Shown in pieces: positions 156-35,585 of a DNA stretch of 35,585 nucleotides. The DNA is from a virus, in IMG/VR virus record IMGVR_UViG_3300010412_000043, positions 1-35,585 of that record. The stretch is one strand, 5' to 3'. The notes below the pieces were generated by a model. That model was given only the letters and a program-made list of their open reading frames with translations. It did no database searches and was not told the origin of the DNA. A program made the translations under genes and the position numbers. The number at the start of each line of letters is the position of its first letter. Positions within the stretch are counted from its first letter, which is position 1.

Positions 156-242
156 GGGGCTACAATAAGTTTTGTACAAAAACAACAATTCTTAAAAAAA
201 TATTTTAATTGGAGAGTTTACATTTGTCGATTTTTTGGATAT

Positions 243-405
243 CTTTATATTATATAAAGCGAGAATAAATTAAGTTTATTCGAGCGCAGACAACTACGAT
301 AGTAGTTGGATACAAAAAACACTTACAAGCGAAGTCTTGTAAGACTACGAGTAATATTGGTATAATCAATATTACGAGTTATCCCAGCCTGTAGATCAGG
401 CTGGG
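243..405. other. Hairpin cluster 2 upstream of first plus-strand gene
   Basis: Five further dyads follow one another with spacers of about 7 to 14 nt. They are CTTTATAT/ATATAAAG (243-259), GAATAAA/TTTATTC (263-281), CAACTAC/GTAGTTG (291-308), CTTACAAG/CTTGTAAG (322-343) and GTAATATTG/CAATATTAC (351-375). A sixth and strongest dyad, CCCAGCCTG/CAGGCTGGG (383-405, 5-nt loop), ends 20 nt before the start codon at 425. Stem lengths rise from 7 to 9 bp towards the gene. If transcribed they would make a densely structured leader; alternatively they are DNA dyads serving as operators. The layout resembles the minus-strand leader at 34349-34466. Confidence 0.75.
337..366 (+). promoter_or_regulatory. 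Candidate sigma70-type promoter within hairpin cluster 2
   Basis: TTGTAA (337-342), an 18-nt spacer and TATAAT (361-366) give a perfect -10 box and a 4/6 -35 box, with a predicted start near 373. The -35 overlaps the right arm of the 322-343 dyad, and the -10 lies in the loop of the 351-375 dyad. A weaker alternative is TTTACA (217-222), 17 nt, TATCTT (240-245), which would place all later dyads in the transcript. Either would drive the plus-strand virion genes. This is inferred from sequence alone. Confidence 0.35.
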
Positions 406-424
406 TAATATAAGAACAAATAGT

Positions 425-955
425 ATGAATTATATAGATTATCTTTCTTTTATAGAAAAGTCAGCAAGTGACCGTGTCCTGCTTCTAAAAGACTCTCTAT
501 ATAGGTATAGAACTAAATCTCTTTTCTACGAATATAGAAAACCAGACTATCCCTTTATCTTCACTCTGAAGGACTACGATCTGGTCATTCCAGATGTAGG
601 TACGATTAAGAGTCTGAAGAGATTATATCTGGAACTAAATGATCCAACTGAGTATACTATTGCTGCTGAGATCTTTGGTGGTCTAGAGCACTGGAATACC
701 CTGACCAGACTTGGTTGGTTCAACCCTTTAATTGAGCAATGGAGAGACGAACTGGAAGTCAAAGTGAGATCAGAAGCTCTACTCCAGCTACGATTACAAT
801 CGGCTAAGTCTACGTCTGCTGCTCAATTTCTATCCAAAGCCATGTGGAAGGATACACGTGGTAGGCCCAGTAAGGCTGAGAAAGACGCTCTACTCAAGAA
901 GGAAGCATGGATTGAAGATGAAGTAGATGAGCTATACAATAGAGCAATTAATTAA
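425..955 (+). CDS. Putative terminase small subunit / DNA maturase A-like protein
   Basis: This 176-residue protein is the first gene of the plus-strand virion block. No domain is certain. The C-terminal third (about residues 125-170) is a charged helical segment with a GRPSKAEKD stretch. Stretches of the GRP(S/T/K)K-E type are common in small terminase-like phage proteins, and the length fits. The large terminase lies 5 kb downstream, so the pairing rests on position and this motif, not on adjacency. The ATG is preceded by no clear Shine-Dalgarno, only AAGAAC, which is unusual among its neighbours, and it follows a strong hairpin ending at 405. It could instead be an unrelated early or regulatory protein. 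Confidence 0.45.
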   Translation: MNYIDYLSFIEKSASDRVLLLKDSLYRYRTKSLFYEYRKPDYPFIFTLKDYDLVIPDVGTIKSLKRLYLELNDPTEYTIAAEIFGGLEHWNTLTRLGWFNPLIEQWRDELEVKVRSEALLQLRLQSAKSTSAAQFLSKAMWKDTRGRPSKAEKDALLKKEAWIEDEVDELYNRAIN

Positions 956-960
956 TTCTT

Positions 961-1035
961 GGCGGGATAGTTTAATTGGAAGAATGGTGGTTTATAGACC
1001 ATCGAATCTGGGTTCAAATCCCAGTCCCGCAACCA
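961..1035 (+). tRNA. tRNA-like gene with encoded CCA, isotype unresolved
   Basis: The sequence folds as a cloverleaf. The acceptor is GGCGGGA (961-967) against TCCCGCA (1025-1031), followed by A and an encoded CCA (1032-1035). T8 and A9 are present, and the D-arm is GTTT/GAAT with a GG-containing 8-nt loop. The T-arm is CTGGG/CCCAG around TTCAAAT. Two points are odd. Positions 1 and 72 are G and A and do not pair. The best anticodon stem, GGTGG (986-990) with CCATC (999-1003), encloses an 8-nt loop TTTATAGA instead of 7. Counting from U33 the anticodon would be UAU (Ile AUA), but the extra base makes this unsafe. An alternative stem ATGGT/ACCAT leaves a 9-nt loop. Confidence 0.7.
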
Positions 1036-29805: not shown

Positions 29806-29944
29806 AGACAACTCCCTCACCTTCACACAATGGGCAATCAAACTCTTCTATAATACCTGTACCATTACATATTGGACATACAGTAGGCAGCGACCTATTC
29901 GTCTGGTGAGCATGCCCCTTCTGTTTCCAAGTGTCGTCGCGCAT
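29798..29944 (-). CDS. 48-residue DnaJ-type zinc-knuckle protein
   Basis: An ATG at 29944, inside the 3' end of the GIY-YIG gene and in another frame, opens 48 codons. The stop at 29798-29800 overlaps the next gene. The product contains CPICNGTG (residues 23-30) and CPLCEGEG (37-44), two exact C-x-x-C-x-G-x-G elements as in the DnaJ zinc-finger domain. They would together hold one zinc ion. Such tiny proteins occur in many phages and may act in protein or nucleic-acid contacts. The motif pair makes chance very unlikely although the ribosome site (GAGAAC) is weak. Confidence 0.75.
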   Translation of the reverse strand: MRDDTWKQKGHAHQTNRSLPTVCPICNGTGIIEEFDCPLCEGEGVVYG

Positions 29945-30395
29945 GTTCTCGTAGTTCTTTTTTTCTACCATTTATAAATCTCCTGATGCGTTGGATCTCG
30001 TTAGCGTCACGTCTATTAAGACTGAGGCTTCCTCTAATCGAGGGAGCAGATCTGTTATAGTATTTTTCTGGTTCCTCAAGGCATCCTGAACAAATAATAG
30101 CAGTGCTCTCTCCGAGAGCCATTCCGGTCTTACTAGAGAACGTAGCGATGATGTGGAATTGAAATTTATCCAATCCGTATCTCTCGATATCAATATGAAC
30201 AAGTCTGCTAGAGCCTTTGTAGAATCTCCACGACTTGTCTGGCAGCATTCTACGACGTTTAAATTTGACGAATTGCTTTCTTCCATAATATGTTTGTCCA
30301 GTTACAGTATTGATGATTGCATATATGAATCCTATTGCGTCATTAATGCTACAACCTTTAGGTATTATCCAGTGATGGTGGTGGTCTATAGACAA
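29895..30395 (-). CDS. GIY-YIG nuclease-like protein
   Basis: The 166-residue product has FIYAIINTVTGQTYYGRKQF (residues 23-42), the GIY-YIG core with variant FIY and YYG, and a conserved Arg (R39). An aromatic/basic stretch WRFYKGSS (56-63) and E96 in ALGESTAI are candidates for the remaining catalytic positions. Two cysteines (ICSGC) and a long Arg-rich helix follow, probably for DNA contact. It resembles free-standing phage GIY-YIG homing-type nucleases. The only plausible start is TTG 30395, with AGGAG nine bases before it. That places the start within the preceding 54-codon gene and suggests late insertion. Confidence 0.75.
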   Translation of the reverse strand: MSIDHHHHWIIPKGCSINDAIGFIYAIINTVTGQTYYGRKQFVKFKRRRMLPDKSWRFYKGSSRLVHIDIERYGLDKFQFHIIATFSSKTGMALGESTAIICSGCLEEPEKYYNRSAPSIRGSLSLNRRDANEIQRIRRFINGRKKELREHARRHLETEGACSPDE

Positions 30396-32043: not shown

Positions 32044-32283
32044 TCATATAAATGCCCGTGGCAAGACCATTGCTTCAACATTTACACGATTAAGTTCTAT
32101 AGCACGTATCAATTCTTCGATAGTATTACTTACGTATTTGTCCTCCTCTTCAGTTAAAAGTTGTCGTCCCTCTTCGTCAACATGGTCCAAGATAGATTCA
32201 AGATCTGCAACAGCGTTTCGTAGTGCGTAGTAACTATTTTCCAGATGGAAGATAATACCATTCAACTCTTTATAGCTTTTCAT
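32044..32283 (-). CDS. Small acidic helical protein
   Basis: ATG 32283 (79 residues) is preferred to a longer frame beginning at 32358, because GGAGTCTTGT stands directly before it and the shorter form overlaps the polymerase end by only 14 nt. The product is mostly two helices with a coiled-coil character (ELNGIIFHLENSYYALRNAV and YVSNTIEELIRAIELNRVNV). It may be a polymerase-linked accessory protein by position, but no family was recognised. Confidence 0.6.
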   Translation of the reverse strand: MKSYKELNGIIFHLENSYYALRNAVADLESILDHVDEEGRQLLTEEEDKYVSNTIEELIRAIELNRVNVEAMVLPRAFI

Positions 32284-34165
32284 ACAAGACTCCGTCAAGT
32301 TTCGTTGGAGGGTTGACCTGGATCTTAGTCTCGACACCCTCACCCCAGTGTTCACCAAATTTCATTCCAACTCCCAATGGAGCAACAAACTCTATATCGT
32401 AAACCTCCTTCAAGTATTTGTAGACGTAGTCTGTGTATGCTTCGATTATAAGGGGCTTGACATCTTCTACTTCGTCTCTGTGTACCTCCATTGGTGATGA
32501 GTCATGAATAGTGTTGATTATAACAGATTTGAGATTTTTGTCAAGTAGTTCGTGCCACAATTTTGTAACAGCGATTGGAATAATATCTGCTGTGGCTAAC
32601 GATTGTACTGGATAGTTGCATATTGCTTCTCTGTTCTTGATGTACTTACTATTCTGTTCTTGTCTTGTATCCGGCCAGTAGAATATCAATCCTGTCTCTG
32701 TTCGTAGATACTTCTGTGCTAGAACCTGTCTAACCCACCAATCCTGTGTCCTTGCTATTCCACTGTACTTTTCTTTGAATGCTTTGTAGTAGGCTTGCTC
32801 TGCTCTGGTTCCGCTTGATCCACCATAAAGAGGTTTGAAAGTATGTGACTTCGCTCCTTGTCTGTCAGTAGCTTGTCCCGCAGCACTAATCGTGTCAGCA
32901 GTAAATGTATGTACGTCAACATTGTCTACGATGTCCTGTATTGCTTGGCGGTCTCTACCAAGGTGTCCTGCTACCCTGAACTCTAGTTGTGCTCCGTCTG
33001 GCTCGCAGTATATATATGCAGGATCTTTTGTCCTGAACAAACGCTTGTATATTCGTGGCAGATTCTGGAACTGGGCCGATTTCTCTTTTTTGAAGAGATC
33101 GAATTTGAGTTTGCGTCCAGAAGAACTAAGACGTTGAGTAGCGGTAATGGTTTGATTAAATTCCCCGAAGAAGATACCATCTTTTTCCCTCACTACTCCT
33201 AGAAAGAACTCCAATGATTTCGATAGTGCTGCGCTTACTTTGGAGTACTCTCGTTGGAGTTGTACGAATGCGAGTTGATCTGGAGTCTTTGCTTTAAGTT
33301 TTGCAAGAGTCTTTGCGTCAGTTTTTGGTTGACCATTTGGGAATTTCTTCGACGGCTTACCTCTAATAGCATTTCCTTTATTGTCTGTAAGCTCATTAAA
33401 TCCAAGTGTCTCATATAAAAATGTTGCCAGTTGTGGTGGAGAGTTTAGGTTTATTCCTCCAGTGATTACTGCAAGCTCTTCCTCGAGTTCTGCAAGTCTC
33501 TTGGACTGGGCTAGGTATTCTGCTTCTACTCTATCCTTGTCAAGAGCTAATCCTTGTTCCTCAATGTGAGTGAGGACTGGAATGAACAGGCATCTTGTGT
33601 ATTGAGTTGGTAGGAGTCCTCTTTCTTTTAGGGCCTTCCGTTGGTCCAGGAAAATCATTCTTGTTTGTTCTACGTCCTTGTTGCATCTGAGTATAAGTAT
33701 TGATCGTGGCATCTCAGACGGACATACGCCAGATTGCATACATAGCTGAACATATGCGTCCTTACCACCATATCCGTATCTCTCAGAGACCGCGTCTAGA
33801 TTGATCTCTTTGCCTTTCCTACCTGATAAGTTGGAGTGTATGACGTATTCTCCAATCATTGTATCGTATACCAGTATCTTGTTTAGCTGTACTCCCATTC
33901 GTGATAGCCAGTGGAGTTCAAATTTGGCATTGTGCGCCACTACCAGAGCAGACCTGTCTATGTCCTGGAGTAGCTCTGCCATCTCATATTCGGATCCTGC
34001 TACTGACTTAAGCAGTCCGTCGTACCACCAGCTTGCTAAGATTAGTCTGTTGTCTGGATTGAGTGCGTTGCCTTTCTCGAGATTGGTAGTTTCAAAATCC
34101 AGAACTAAGTAGTTATCCGTCAGCAGTAGTGTTGGATCTGGATTGGTTATGAATTCTGGAATCAT
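32270..34165 (-). CDS. Family A DNA polymerase with 3'-5' exonuclease
   Basis: The ATG 34165 start (631 residues) overlaps the previous stop (ATGA); GTG 34180 would add five residues. The proofreading domain shows LVLDFETTN (exo I, D23/E25), AHNAKFELHWL (exo II, near 77-87) and a tyrosine-containing exo III region. The polymerase domain has TATQRLSSSG (about 341-350), motif A EPDGAQLEFR with D390, and motif B RQGAKSHTFKPLYGG (435-449). Motif C is IHDSSPMEV with D555. Motif C has HDS where E. coli Pol I has HDE. No 5' nuclease domain is present; this is supplied by the separate exonuclease gene. It is the replicative polymerase of the phage. Confidence 0.93.
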   Translation of the reverse strand: MIPEFITNPDPTLLLTDNYLVLDFETTNLEKGNALNPDNRLILASWWYDGLLKSVAGSEYEMAELLQDIDRSALVVAHNAKFELHWLSRMGVQLNKILVYDTMIGEYVIHSNLSGRKGKEINLDAVSERYGYGGKDAYVQLCMQSGVCPSEMPRSILILRCNKDVEQTRMIFLDQRKALKERGLLPTQYTRCLFIPVLTHIEEQGLALDKDRVEAEYLAQSKRLAELEEELAVITGGINLNSPPQLATFLYETLGFNELTDNKGNAIRGKPSKKFPNGQPKTDAKTLAKLKAKTPDQLAFVQLQREYSKVSAALSKSLEFFLGVVREKDGIFFGEFNQTITATQRLSSSGRKLKFDLFKKEKSAQFQNLPRIYKRLFRTKDPAYIYCEPDGAQLEFRVAGHLGRDRQAIQDIVDNVDVHTFTADTISAAGQATDRQGAKSHTFKPLYGGSSGTRAEQAYYKAFKEKYSGIARTQDWWVRQVLAQKYLRTETGLIFYWPDTRQEQNSKYIKNREAICNYPVQSLATADIIPIAVTKLWHELLDKNLKSVIINTIHDSSPMEVHRDEVEDVKPLIIEAYTDYVYKYLKEVYDIEFVAPLGVGMKFGEHWGEGVETKIQVNPPTKLDGVLYEKL

Positions 34166-34332
34166 GCATTCTTCAAACACTCACTGGGAGTTGGAGATTT
34201 ATGAATCGGTACTGGTACTATAATTGGTATTCTTGAATTAGTGAACGCCTCTGTGGCGTTCTGGATATGGACTGCAATAGCAAGCAGTCCAATTATGATT
34301 GTTAGTGTAGAGAATAATATTGTTTTTGTCAT
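34162..34332 (-). CDS. Small membrane-anchored peptide behind promoter leader
   Basis: ATG 34332 (56 residues) has AGGAAAATATTA in front. A longer frame from 34362 would begin inside a hairpin of the leader. The product starts with a membrane segment (ILFSTLTIIIGLLAIAVHI, about residues 5-23) followed by a polar, Pro-rich tail (IPIIVPVPIHKSPTPSE). It may be an uncleaved signal anchor or an exported peptide. It is the first gene of the transcript that begins at the 34475-34503 promoter and is coupled to the polymerase gene by ATGA. Confidence 0.6.
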   Translation of the reverse strand: MTKTILFSTLTIIIGLLAIAVHIQNATEAFTNSRIPIIVPVPIHKSPTPSECLKNA

Positions 34333-34348
34333 TAATATTTTCCTATTA

Positions 34349-34466
34349 ACCAGAATTCCCATAAGAGGAATTCTGGTATTATTGGAAACTTAATTTTTTT
34401 CTAATGAAAAAATTAAGTTTCTTATTGCTTAACTGTCTTAGACAGTTAAGTTATTATCTCAATAAC
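34349..34466 (-). other. Four-hairpin 5' leader of the polymerase operon
   Basis: Read on the minus strand, four perfect dyads follow each other. They are GTTATT/AATAAC (34466-34450, 5-nt loop), CTTAACTGTC/GACAGTTAAG (34450-34428, 3-nt loop), GAAACTTAATTTTTT/AAAAAATTAAGTTTC (34421-34385, 15 bp, 7-nt loop) and ACCAGAATTCC/GGAATTCTGGT (34377-34349, 7-nt loop). The predicted transcript start is about base 34468, so the RNA would open with these hairpins almost without single-stranded spacing. The last ends 17 nt before ATG 34332. None has a terminator-like layout apart from the A/T-rich third stem. Confidence 0.8.
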
Positions 34467-34474
34467 TAATATAT

Positions 34475-34503
34475 ATTATAGCATATTTTTCACCAAATGT
34501 CAA
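34475..34503 (-). promoter_or_regulatory. Consensus sigma70-type promoter with extended -10
   Basis: On the minus strand TTGACA (34503-34498), a 17-nt spacer and TATAAT (34480-34475) match the sigma70 consensus at all 12 positions with optimal spacing. The spacer ends in TGC, an extended -10 element. It lies two bases beyond the helicase stop codon. The expected start is near 34468. It would give strong transcription by host RNA polymerase of the membrane peptide, polymerase and downstream replication genes. A palindrome TAATATATATTA (34467-34478) covers the -10 and start region and might be an operator. Confidence 0.9.
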
Positions 34504-34505
34504 CA

Positions 34506-35585
34506 CTATTTTTGAAATAAAACTTCCAGGTTCTTCGCCAGACTGAGTTTTGGTACGAATCGCATGTAAACTGTGCTGTGGTCTCCAGATATCTTGTTCT
34601 TAATGAAGGTTGCTGCTCTCTCATTATGGGATGCCATAGTAGCGTCTGCTCCAACTCCTATCATGACATCAGCAGATCCAGGGATACCAGTATTGGAGAA
34701 GTCCACATCACCCATCGTCAGTACAATCTTGTCATCGGCTGAATCTCCAGCCTGAGTAATGGACAATCCTACTGCTCCAACATCCTTGTAAATGGCCCTG
34801 AGAGAGCGTGCAATGTACTCTAAGCCCTCAACCCTAGCCATACTACTGGTTGTGTTAATATTGCGTAGCTGGTCCACTACAATGACTTTGGGCTCATGTT
34901 CCTCCGCCATCCTACGCACAAGACCAACATCCATCTTACCTTTAGCAACAAATACCAAGTTCCAGTATCCACGATTCTCTGCCAATGCCCATGCCTTTCC
35001 AGGACTAGCCCTGATTGCATCAAGGTCCATTTCTGCTAGTCTGGACACAAACCTCATCCTCATGACTTGGTGAGGATCCTCATTGCCAAAGTACAGAACT
35101 TTATGACCTTGCTTTAGGAACTCTGATGCCATATTAATAGCCAACAAGGACTTGCCCATCTCTGGTCTGGCTATCAGGATAATATGAGTTCCAGGTGGAA
35201 CACCTCCTCCAAGTACATCATTTAAGTTTGGTGGATGTAATTTAATGAGATTCTCCCCACGGAATGGTTCTAGAAGTTCTTCAATAGTACCTCCTATAAA
35301 TACATCCTCACTTTCTTGGGCTTCAACTGGAGTGTCAAGTTCCTTCAGTCTCTCTATTAACTGCGGTATCTTATCTGATGTGGGCGTCGTTAATAAAAGA
35401 CCTCCAAGATCTTGAGCTACTGCGTTTCGTTGTACTCGTCTATATTCCTCCAGTATGTTAGGTACTGAAACTTTTTCAAGGTTATTTAGAGCATTTATTA
35501 AGGTCTTGCTCTGCTTCGGGAAGTCCTGTTCTATTCTGTGTGATAAAATTTCCTTATCACACTCCTCTGCATTTGGATCTATATC
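34506..35585 (-). CDS. DnaB-like replicative helicase, N-terminus beyond window
   Basis: At least 359 residues are visible; the frame stays open to the right edge. The visible N-terminal part is helical (QSKTLINALNNLEKVSVPNILEEYRR, like the DnaB N-terminal region). A linker leads to a RecA-type core with Walker A IARPEMGKS, where family members mostly read ARPGMGK(S/T). FGNEDP follows, then Walker B KVIVVDQL, sensor SITQAGDSAD, and C-terminal strands with TFIKNKISGD. It unwinds DNA ahead of the polymerase. No primase domain is seen in the visible part. The stop TAG (34508-34506) is followed after two bases by the promoter of the next unit. Confidence 0.85.
   Translation of the reverse strand, partial: DIDPNAEECDKEILSHRIEQDFPKQSKTLINALNNLEKVSVPNILEEYRRVQRNAVAQDLGGLLLTTPTSDKIPQLIERLKELDTPVEAQESEDVFIGGTIEELLEPFRGENLIKLHPPNLNDVLGGGVPPGTHIILIARPEMGKSLLAINMASEFLKQGHKVLYFGNEDPHQVMRMRFVSRLAEMDLDAIRASPGKAWALAENRGYWNLVFVAKGKMDVGLVRRMAEEHEPKVIVVDQLRNINTTSSMARVEGLEYIARSLRAIYKDVGAVGLSITQAGDSADDKIVLTMGDVDFSNTGIPGSADVMIGVGADATMASHNERAATFIKNKISGDHSTVYMRFVPKLSLAKNLEVLFQK

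What the first reader, a model, noticed from the sequence alone, without database searches (positions are those of the whole stretch)
34349..34503. Perfect promoter firing straight into a chain of four hairpins
A 12/12 consensus promoter with an extended -10 and 17-nt spacing sits directly behind the helicase gene. Its predicted transcript begins with four back-to-back perfect hairpins (6, 10, 15 and 11 bp; loops 3-7 nt) before the first start codon. The stems are unrelated, so this is not a repeat family, yet almost every base of the leader is paired. Known precedents for hairpins placed right at the transcript start are the put antiterminator RNAs of HK022, where two stem-loops modify RNA polymerase. 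Other options are RNase protection, host-factor binding, or attenuation of the replication operon. A leader made wholly of chained hairpins may be an undescribed RNA regulator.
Basis: partly seen in the sequence, partly recalled or inferred. Interest (0 to 1): 0.72.

Follow-up and report, generated by a model that had tools for sequence, protein, structure and literature searches.

The report
Phage leaders built from chained hairpins
A Zobellviridae-like phage has, right behind a textbook promoter, a stretch between two genes that is almost entirely back-to-back hairpins; the same genome has a second such chain and several distant relatives have their own with unrelated sequences, which points to a sequence-free structural element whose job is still untested.

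Summary
On the minus strand, a 12/12 sigma-70-type promoter with extended -10 directly follows the DnaB-like helicase gene, and the predicted leader is a chain of perfect hairpins (fold z about -8; none of 200 or 500 shuffles equal it). One correction: the 6-bp first hairpin shares a base with the second, and the best fold replaces it by an 8-bp helix with the start-codon region. The chain is not unique. An energy scan found a second one (window 243-405, six hairpins) at the start of the structural operon. Three robust chains (L125, L129, L293) lie in replication-module gaps of phages related through their DNA polymerase (about 44-51% identity; Zobellviridae-like). Stem sequences are mutually unrelated. 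None of T4, T7, N4, HK022, SIO1, HTVC010P, VpV262 or lambdoid contigs has one. It is not a put RNA, an Rfam family or a set of terminators. Best reading (inferred, about 0.4): a sequence-independent structured 5' leader shielding phage mRNA from decay and Rho. The main rival is a DNA-level function (origin or single-strand hairpins), supported by the near-absence of G-U pairs and equal folding of both strands. There are no transcript data, and no close relative of this phage was found.

The parts
34475..34503 (-). sigma-70-type promoter, TTGACA-17-TATAAT with extended -10 (TGC)
   Evidence: 12/12 match; not shown to be active
34450..34466 (-). hairpin 1 (6 bp, loop 5); shares base 34450 with hairpin 2; competes with an 8-bp helix to the start-codon region
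34428..34450 (-). hairpin 2 (10 bp, loop 3)
34385..34421 (-). hairpin 3 (15 bp, loop 7)
34349..34377 (-). hairpin 4 (11 bp, loop 7), ends 4 nt before the Shine-Dalgarno
34341..34344 (-). Shine-Dalgarno-like AGGA
   Evidence: read directly
34162..34332 (-). 56-aa ORF with a hydrophobic N-terminus between helicase and polymerase; no family match
   Evidence: small ORFs sit at the same place in VpV262 and 1.070.O, homology not detected
34243..34291 (-). two further perfect hairpins (8 and 7 bp) inside the small ORF
34506..35585 (-). DnaB-like replicative helicase, cut by the window end
   Evidence: Pfam DnaB_C 1.9e-15, PHROG 19 8.6e-43
32270..34180 (-). family A DNA polymerase
   Evidence: Pfam DNA_pol_A 1.8e-42
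243..405 (+). second chain: six perfect hairpins (7,7,7,8,9,9 bp) filling the leader of the structural operon; 252-421 folds with z -8.0
217..245 (+). weak promoter-like site TTTACA-17-TATCTT upstream of the second chain
   Evidence: 9/12; not above chance on its own
425..955 (+). first ORF after the second chain (PHROG 8035, unknown function)
   Evidence: L052 encodes a 34% identical homologue that also follows hairpins

Best explanation
The chain is a sequence-independent structured 5' leader. Host RNA polymerase starts at about 34467 from the strong promoter; the untranslated leader folds as it emerges into consecutive hairpins that begin 1-2 nt from the predicted 5' end and stop 4 nt before the ribosome-binding site. 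This leaves no accessible single strand for 5'-end attack (RppH, RNase E) or for Rho loading and limits RNA polymerase backtracking, so the polymerase operon message lasts and is completed. Only pairing matters, so the stems can change freely, which is why the second chain and those of relatives have unrelated sequences. Shown: the promoter match, the structure, its excess over chance, its recurrence in upstream-of-gene gaps, the absence of shared sequence. Inferred: transcription from this promoter, co-transcriptional folding, and every protective step.
For: The chain fills the space between the predicted start and the Shine-Dalgarno. Both chains of this genome, and nine of the ten chains in the related set, lie in gaps between two same-strand genes, upstream of a gene; none lies in 85 convergent or 50 divergent gaps. 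Recurrence with unrelated stems fits a function carried by structure alone. In L205 versus L203 the sequence just upstream of the -10 has changed while the stems have not. Orthologous leaders before helicase in L372-L384 keep hairpins in place with some compensated pairs. A 5' hairpin is known to stabilise E. coli mRNA and to impede RppH (review PMC3997798), and long 5' UTRs alter RNA stability in phage SW1 (PMC4762005).
Against: No transcript or half-life data. A clear promoter is seen only for this chain; those of L293, L129 and the second chain have at best weak matches. Stems have 2.6% G-U pairs against 10% in shuffles and both strands fold equally well, which a purely RNA function does not predict. 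One good 5' hairpin would do for RppH. Most relatives, including VpV262, have no chain. In the equilibrium fold the start codon is mostly paired, which would lower translation.
Confidence: 0.4

Rival explanations
1. DNA-level element: the palindromes act as DNA, as part of a replication origin or as hairpins on single-stranded DNA (or cruciforms) recognised by primase, SSB or another replication protein, as at complementary-strand origins of small phages (precedent from own knowledge).
For: Robust chains of relatives sit in replication-module gaps before primase, helicase or nearby genes; stems are perfect on both strands with only 7 G-U pairs in 274.
Against: This genome has two chains, one at the structural operon; chain positions differ among relatives; a strong promoter feeds straight into the chain; G-U scarcity is partly due to searching for perfect stems, although the second chain was found by energy alone and has 2 G-U in 51 pairs.
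Confidence: 0.25
2. put-like antitermination RNA that binds and modifies RNA polymerase.
For: Leader position right after a strong promoter, one chain on each of the two transcription units, and no phage RNA polymerase found among the families searched.
Against: put needs a specific two-stem fold with bulges and non-canonical pairs and a conserved sequence (PMC9378689); the chains are perfect, mutually unrelated and not similar to the HK022 copy.
Confidence: 0.07
3. Translation control: the 5' end pairs with the start-codon region of the 56-aa ORF, closing the hairpins into a junction, and hairpin 1 forming first gives an open state; a switch or thermosensor.
For: 8-bp helix GUUAUUGA/UUAAUGAC in the best fold, start codon about 9% unpaired. 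Closing helices are also predicted around the L125, L129 and second-chain leaders.
Against: Equally stable pairing arises in 78 of 1000 shuffled ends, so it is not significant for this leader.
Confidence: 0.1
4. Processing sites or protein-binding stems (RNase III or a phage RNA-binding protein).
For: Perfect stems at operon leaders resemble places where T7-type messages are processed (own knowledge).
Against: Stems of 6-15 bp are shorter than typical RNase III sites; no shared loop or stem sequence for a specific binder.
Confidence: 0.08
5. No function: palindromes created and kept perfect by template-switching during replication in AT-rich gaps.
For: Perfect Watson-Crick stems and fast turnover of sequence; AT-only chains (L302, L365) are no more structured than their own shuffles.
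Against: The GC-containing chains are far beyond shuffles (z -6 to -8), chains are absent from convergent and divergent gaps and from the control phages, and L205 keeps stems while the neighbouring sequence changes.
Confidence: 0.1

Closest known systems
5'-terminal stem-loops that stabilise bacterial mRNA (ompA, papA leaders)
   Same: hairpin close to the transcript 5' end upstream of the ribosome-binding site; sequence matters little
   Different: here four in a row (six in the second chain) filling the whole leader; stability not measured
HK022 put antiterminator RNAs
   Same: stem-loops at the start of phage transcripts, one per operon
   Different: put is a two-stem RNA with bulges and a conserved sequence that contacts the RNA polymerase zinc-binding domain; these chains share no sequence
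Hairpin arrays at single-strand replication origins (G4-type), from own knowledge
   Same: several adjacent stem-loops close to replication genes
   Different: double-stranded DNA phage, two chains per genome, unrelated stems, promoter in front
N4 virion RNA polymerase hairpin promoters, from own knowledge
   Same: short hairpins upstream of phage genes
   Different: needs a virion RNA polymerase; the large virion protein here matches an internal virion protein family (PHROG 12003), not an RNA polymerase

Membership tests
HK022 put RNA | conserved put sequence shared by putL and putR | tested here: not met
   local alignment to the likely put copies no better than shuffles; the two chains of the window are unlike each other
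HK022 put RNA | about 70 nt, two stems with bulges and non-canonical pairs | tested here: not met
   three to four perfect stems over about 118 nt, six in the second chain
HK022 put RNA | suppresses termination by binding the beta' zinc-binding domain | not testable with these tools
   needs transcription assays
5'-terminal mRNA-stabilising stem-loop | stem within a few nt of the 5' end | tested here: inconclusive
   hairpin 1 starts 1-2 nt after the predicted start, but the start is not mapped and hairpin 1 is not in the best fold; the 5' end is paired in either fold
5'-terminal mRNA-stabilising stem-loop | longer mRNA half-life | not testable with these tools
   needs experiment
Intrinsic terminator / attenuator | G+C-rich stem followed by a T run on the transcribed strand | tested here: not met
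   no minus-strand terminator found in 33500-35585; no chains in 85 convergent gaps
Known Rfam families | score above gathering threshold | tested here: not met
   only a tRNA in the window; nothing near threshold at either chain
N4-type vRNAP hairpin promoter | phage encodes a virion RNA polymerase | tested here: not met
   1410-aa virion protein matches PHROG 12003 internal virion protein only; genome incomplete
Replication origin | initiation of DNA synthesis at the site | not testable with these tools
   GC skew follows gene strand and is uninformative here

The most novel reading that the evidence does not exclude
Zobellviridae-like phages carry an undescribed class of sequence-free regulatory or replication element: chains of consecutive perfect hairpins that fill leaders of their operons, whose architecture is selected while the sequence turns over completely, so that no sequence or covariance search can find it.
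Probability: 0.3. Interest if true: 0.75.

Novelty: new variant of a known kind. Interest (0 to 1): 0.55.

Why it matters
Functional RNAs and origins are normally found by conserved sequence or by covariation in an alignment. A feature selected only for being a row of hairpins escapes both. If chains protect phage messages or license replication, they are a compact, portable part and a new type of signal to look for in phage genomes. The scan used here (consecutive perfect stems of 6 bp or more within 25 nt) finds it directly and can be run on all phages. It also gives a clear experimental test: swap a whole chain for one of unrelated sequence.

Tried and rejected
DNA search for this leader and flanks in 50,697 phage records: no match. 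Helicase as a single query in viral contigs: none. No close relative found, so covariation of this very leader could not be tested. 1.35 Mb of mostly capsid relatives gave one more weak chain (L208 1379-1487), which is built of repeated ACTTAGT-type units in a long AT-rich region and is set aside. AT-only chains (L302, L338, L365) are not above shuffles of their own gap and are not counted as robust. L052 (four hairpins upstream of a homologue of ORF 425) has a fold z of only -1.4 although its perfect stems exceed 500 of 500 shuffles: counted as suggestive. L140 42575-42737 is strongly structured (z -6.3) but with G-U pairs and strand asymmetry, not a perfect chain. Rfam at E up to 5: only chance-level matches. 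GC skew gave no origin signal. Terminator, repeat-family, put and N4-promoter readings rejected or lowered as stated in the membership table. Literature searches for consecutive or tandem hairpins in phage leaders found no description in the held library; subscription papers are not held.

Full report
What is there. The window is a 35,585-base virus record with structural genes on the + strand and replication genes on the - strand. Between the DnaB-like helicase (34506-35585, -) and a 56-aa ORF (34332-34162, -) that overlaps the start of a family A DNA polymerase (34180-32270, -) lies a promoter with all 12 consensus bases, 17-nt spacing and an extended -10. Two perfect TTGACA/TATAAT pairs exist in the window where 0.03 are expected; the other is inside the polymerase gene. 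The predicted start is at about 34467. From there to the Shine-Dalgarno AGGA at 34344 nearly every base belongs to a hairpin of 6, 10, 15 or 11 bp. The fold is 8 standard deviations below shuffles, and the region is the most extreme of the window.

Hairpins 1 and 2 share base 34450. At equilibrium hairpin 1 is displaced by an 8-bp helix between the 5' end and the start codon of the 56-aa ORF; as shuffled ends pair as well in 8% of cases this may be chance. Two more perfect hairpins follow inside the small ORF.

A second chain in the same genome. The energy scan, which does not look for perfect stems, also picked window 301-440. Reading it shows six perfect hairpins in a row from 243 to 405, directly before the first ORF of the structural operon, fold z -8.0 for 252-421. 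With stems of at least 7 bp and gaps up to 30 nt, the window has two clusters of three or more hairpins; 100 shuffles gave a mean of 0.01.

Relatives. The polymerase is 40-45% identical to that of Vibrio phages of the Zobellviridae (VpV262, 1.209.O, 1.070.O), whose genomes show no such chain. A scan of 88 non-redundant records related through the polymerase (1.42 Mb) found ten chains; nine lie in gaps between same-strand genes and the tenth (L125) runs across the start of a primase-like gene; none lies in 85 convergent or 50 divergent gaps. Robust against shuffles of their own sequence are both window chains, L293 (seven hairpins, z -8.0), L129 (= L008; z -6.8) and L125 (= L004; z -6.2). AT-only chains (L302, L338, L365) are not. 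Chain sequences are no more alike than shuffles. Lambdoid control contigs (0.43 Mb) have none, and T4 (first 50 kb), T7, N4 (first 40 kb), HK022, SIO1 and HTVC010P have none above 21 paired bases, against 36 and 47 in the window.

Is the structure selected? Indirect evidence comes from relatives. In L205 versus L203 the sequence just upstream of the -10 shows a 10-nt deletion and several substitutions, while the chain shows one change, outside the stems. In a clade with 80-100% identical helicases (L372-L384) the gap before the helicase keeps hairpins at the same places with changed sequences: TAAGTAGT-ctaa-ACTACTTA, AGTAGT-ttaa-ACTACT, AAAAGTAGT-ccag-ACTACTTTT; and ATAATATTAC-aatt-GTAATATTAT, ATAATTAC-tta-GTAATTAT, ATTAC-att-GTAAT. 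Counted from the loop, five pair positions change on both sides with pairing kept (one in the first family, four in the second), and several others are broken. These gaps are AT-rich and individually weak, so this is moderate support only.

RNA or DNA? The five robust chains have 7 G-U pairs in 274 (2.6%); shuffles give 10% and other structured gaps 11%, and both strands fold equally well. Part of this is ascertainment, because the scan seeks perfect stems, but the second chain was found by energy and has 2 in 51. So the elements are palindromic as DNA, which keeps an origin or single-strand-hairpin role open, all the more since the robust chains of relatives lie in replication modules. Against it stand the strong promoter aimed into this chain, the two chains per genome, and the exclusive upstream-of-gene placement.

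Best reading. I favour a sequence-independent structural leader (0.4): the hairpins shield the untranslated 5' part from RppH and RNase E and from Rho. A 5' hairpin is known to stabilise mRNA and impede RppH (PMC3997798), and long 5' UTRs change RNA stability in phage SW1 (PMC4762005). The protective steps are inferred. put-like antitermination is unlikely because put is a specific, bulged, conserved two-stem RNA (PMC9378689) and nothing of that is met. Terminators are excluded by the lack of T-tracts on the transcribed strand.

Limits. There are no transcript data; the host is unknown; the record is incomplete; ORFs are mechanical calls; the metagenome collection was not searched; the hairpin scan settings were chosen after seeing this chain, although shuffles and control phages were treated alike.

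Noticed in passing
243-405 (+), extending to about 27: Second hairpin chain in the leader of the structural operon; weaker hairpins (5-6 bp) continue upstream to about position 27, roughly 13 in 380 nt.
   Followed up: yes
32517-32544 (-): Second perfect TTGACA-16-TATAAT promoter with TG before the -10, inside the polymerase coding sequence.
   Followed up: no
961-1035 (+): tRNA gene (Rfam 47 bits) for which ARAGORN reports a four-base anticodon (tata); possible unusual anticodon loop.
   Followed up: no
358-366 (+): TGGTATAAT with a TTGTAA 18 nt upstream; the -10 falls in the loop of a hairpin of the second chain, so a promoter may lie inside the chain.
   Followed up: no
L140 (Vibrio phage 1.209.O) 42575-42737 (-): Strongly structured leader (z -6.3) with repeated GTATACagtGTATAC hairpins and G-U pairs, asymmetric between strands.
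   Followed up: partly
L125 2418-2437 (= L004 743-762): Hairpin with the Shine-Dalgarno in the loop and the start codon of the primase-like gene in the stem (ATGTTTTCtggaGAAAACATGG), looks like a translation-control stem.
   Followed up: no
29895-30395 (-): GIY-YIG homing-type endonuclease (Pfam SegE_GIY-YIG) within the replication gene cluster.
   Followed up: no
L208 1279-1487: Long AT-rich noncoding stretch with repeated ACTAAG/CTTAGT palindromes, possibly an origin with iterons.
   Followed up: no
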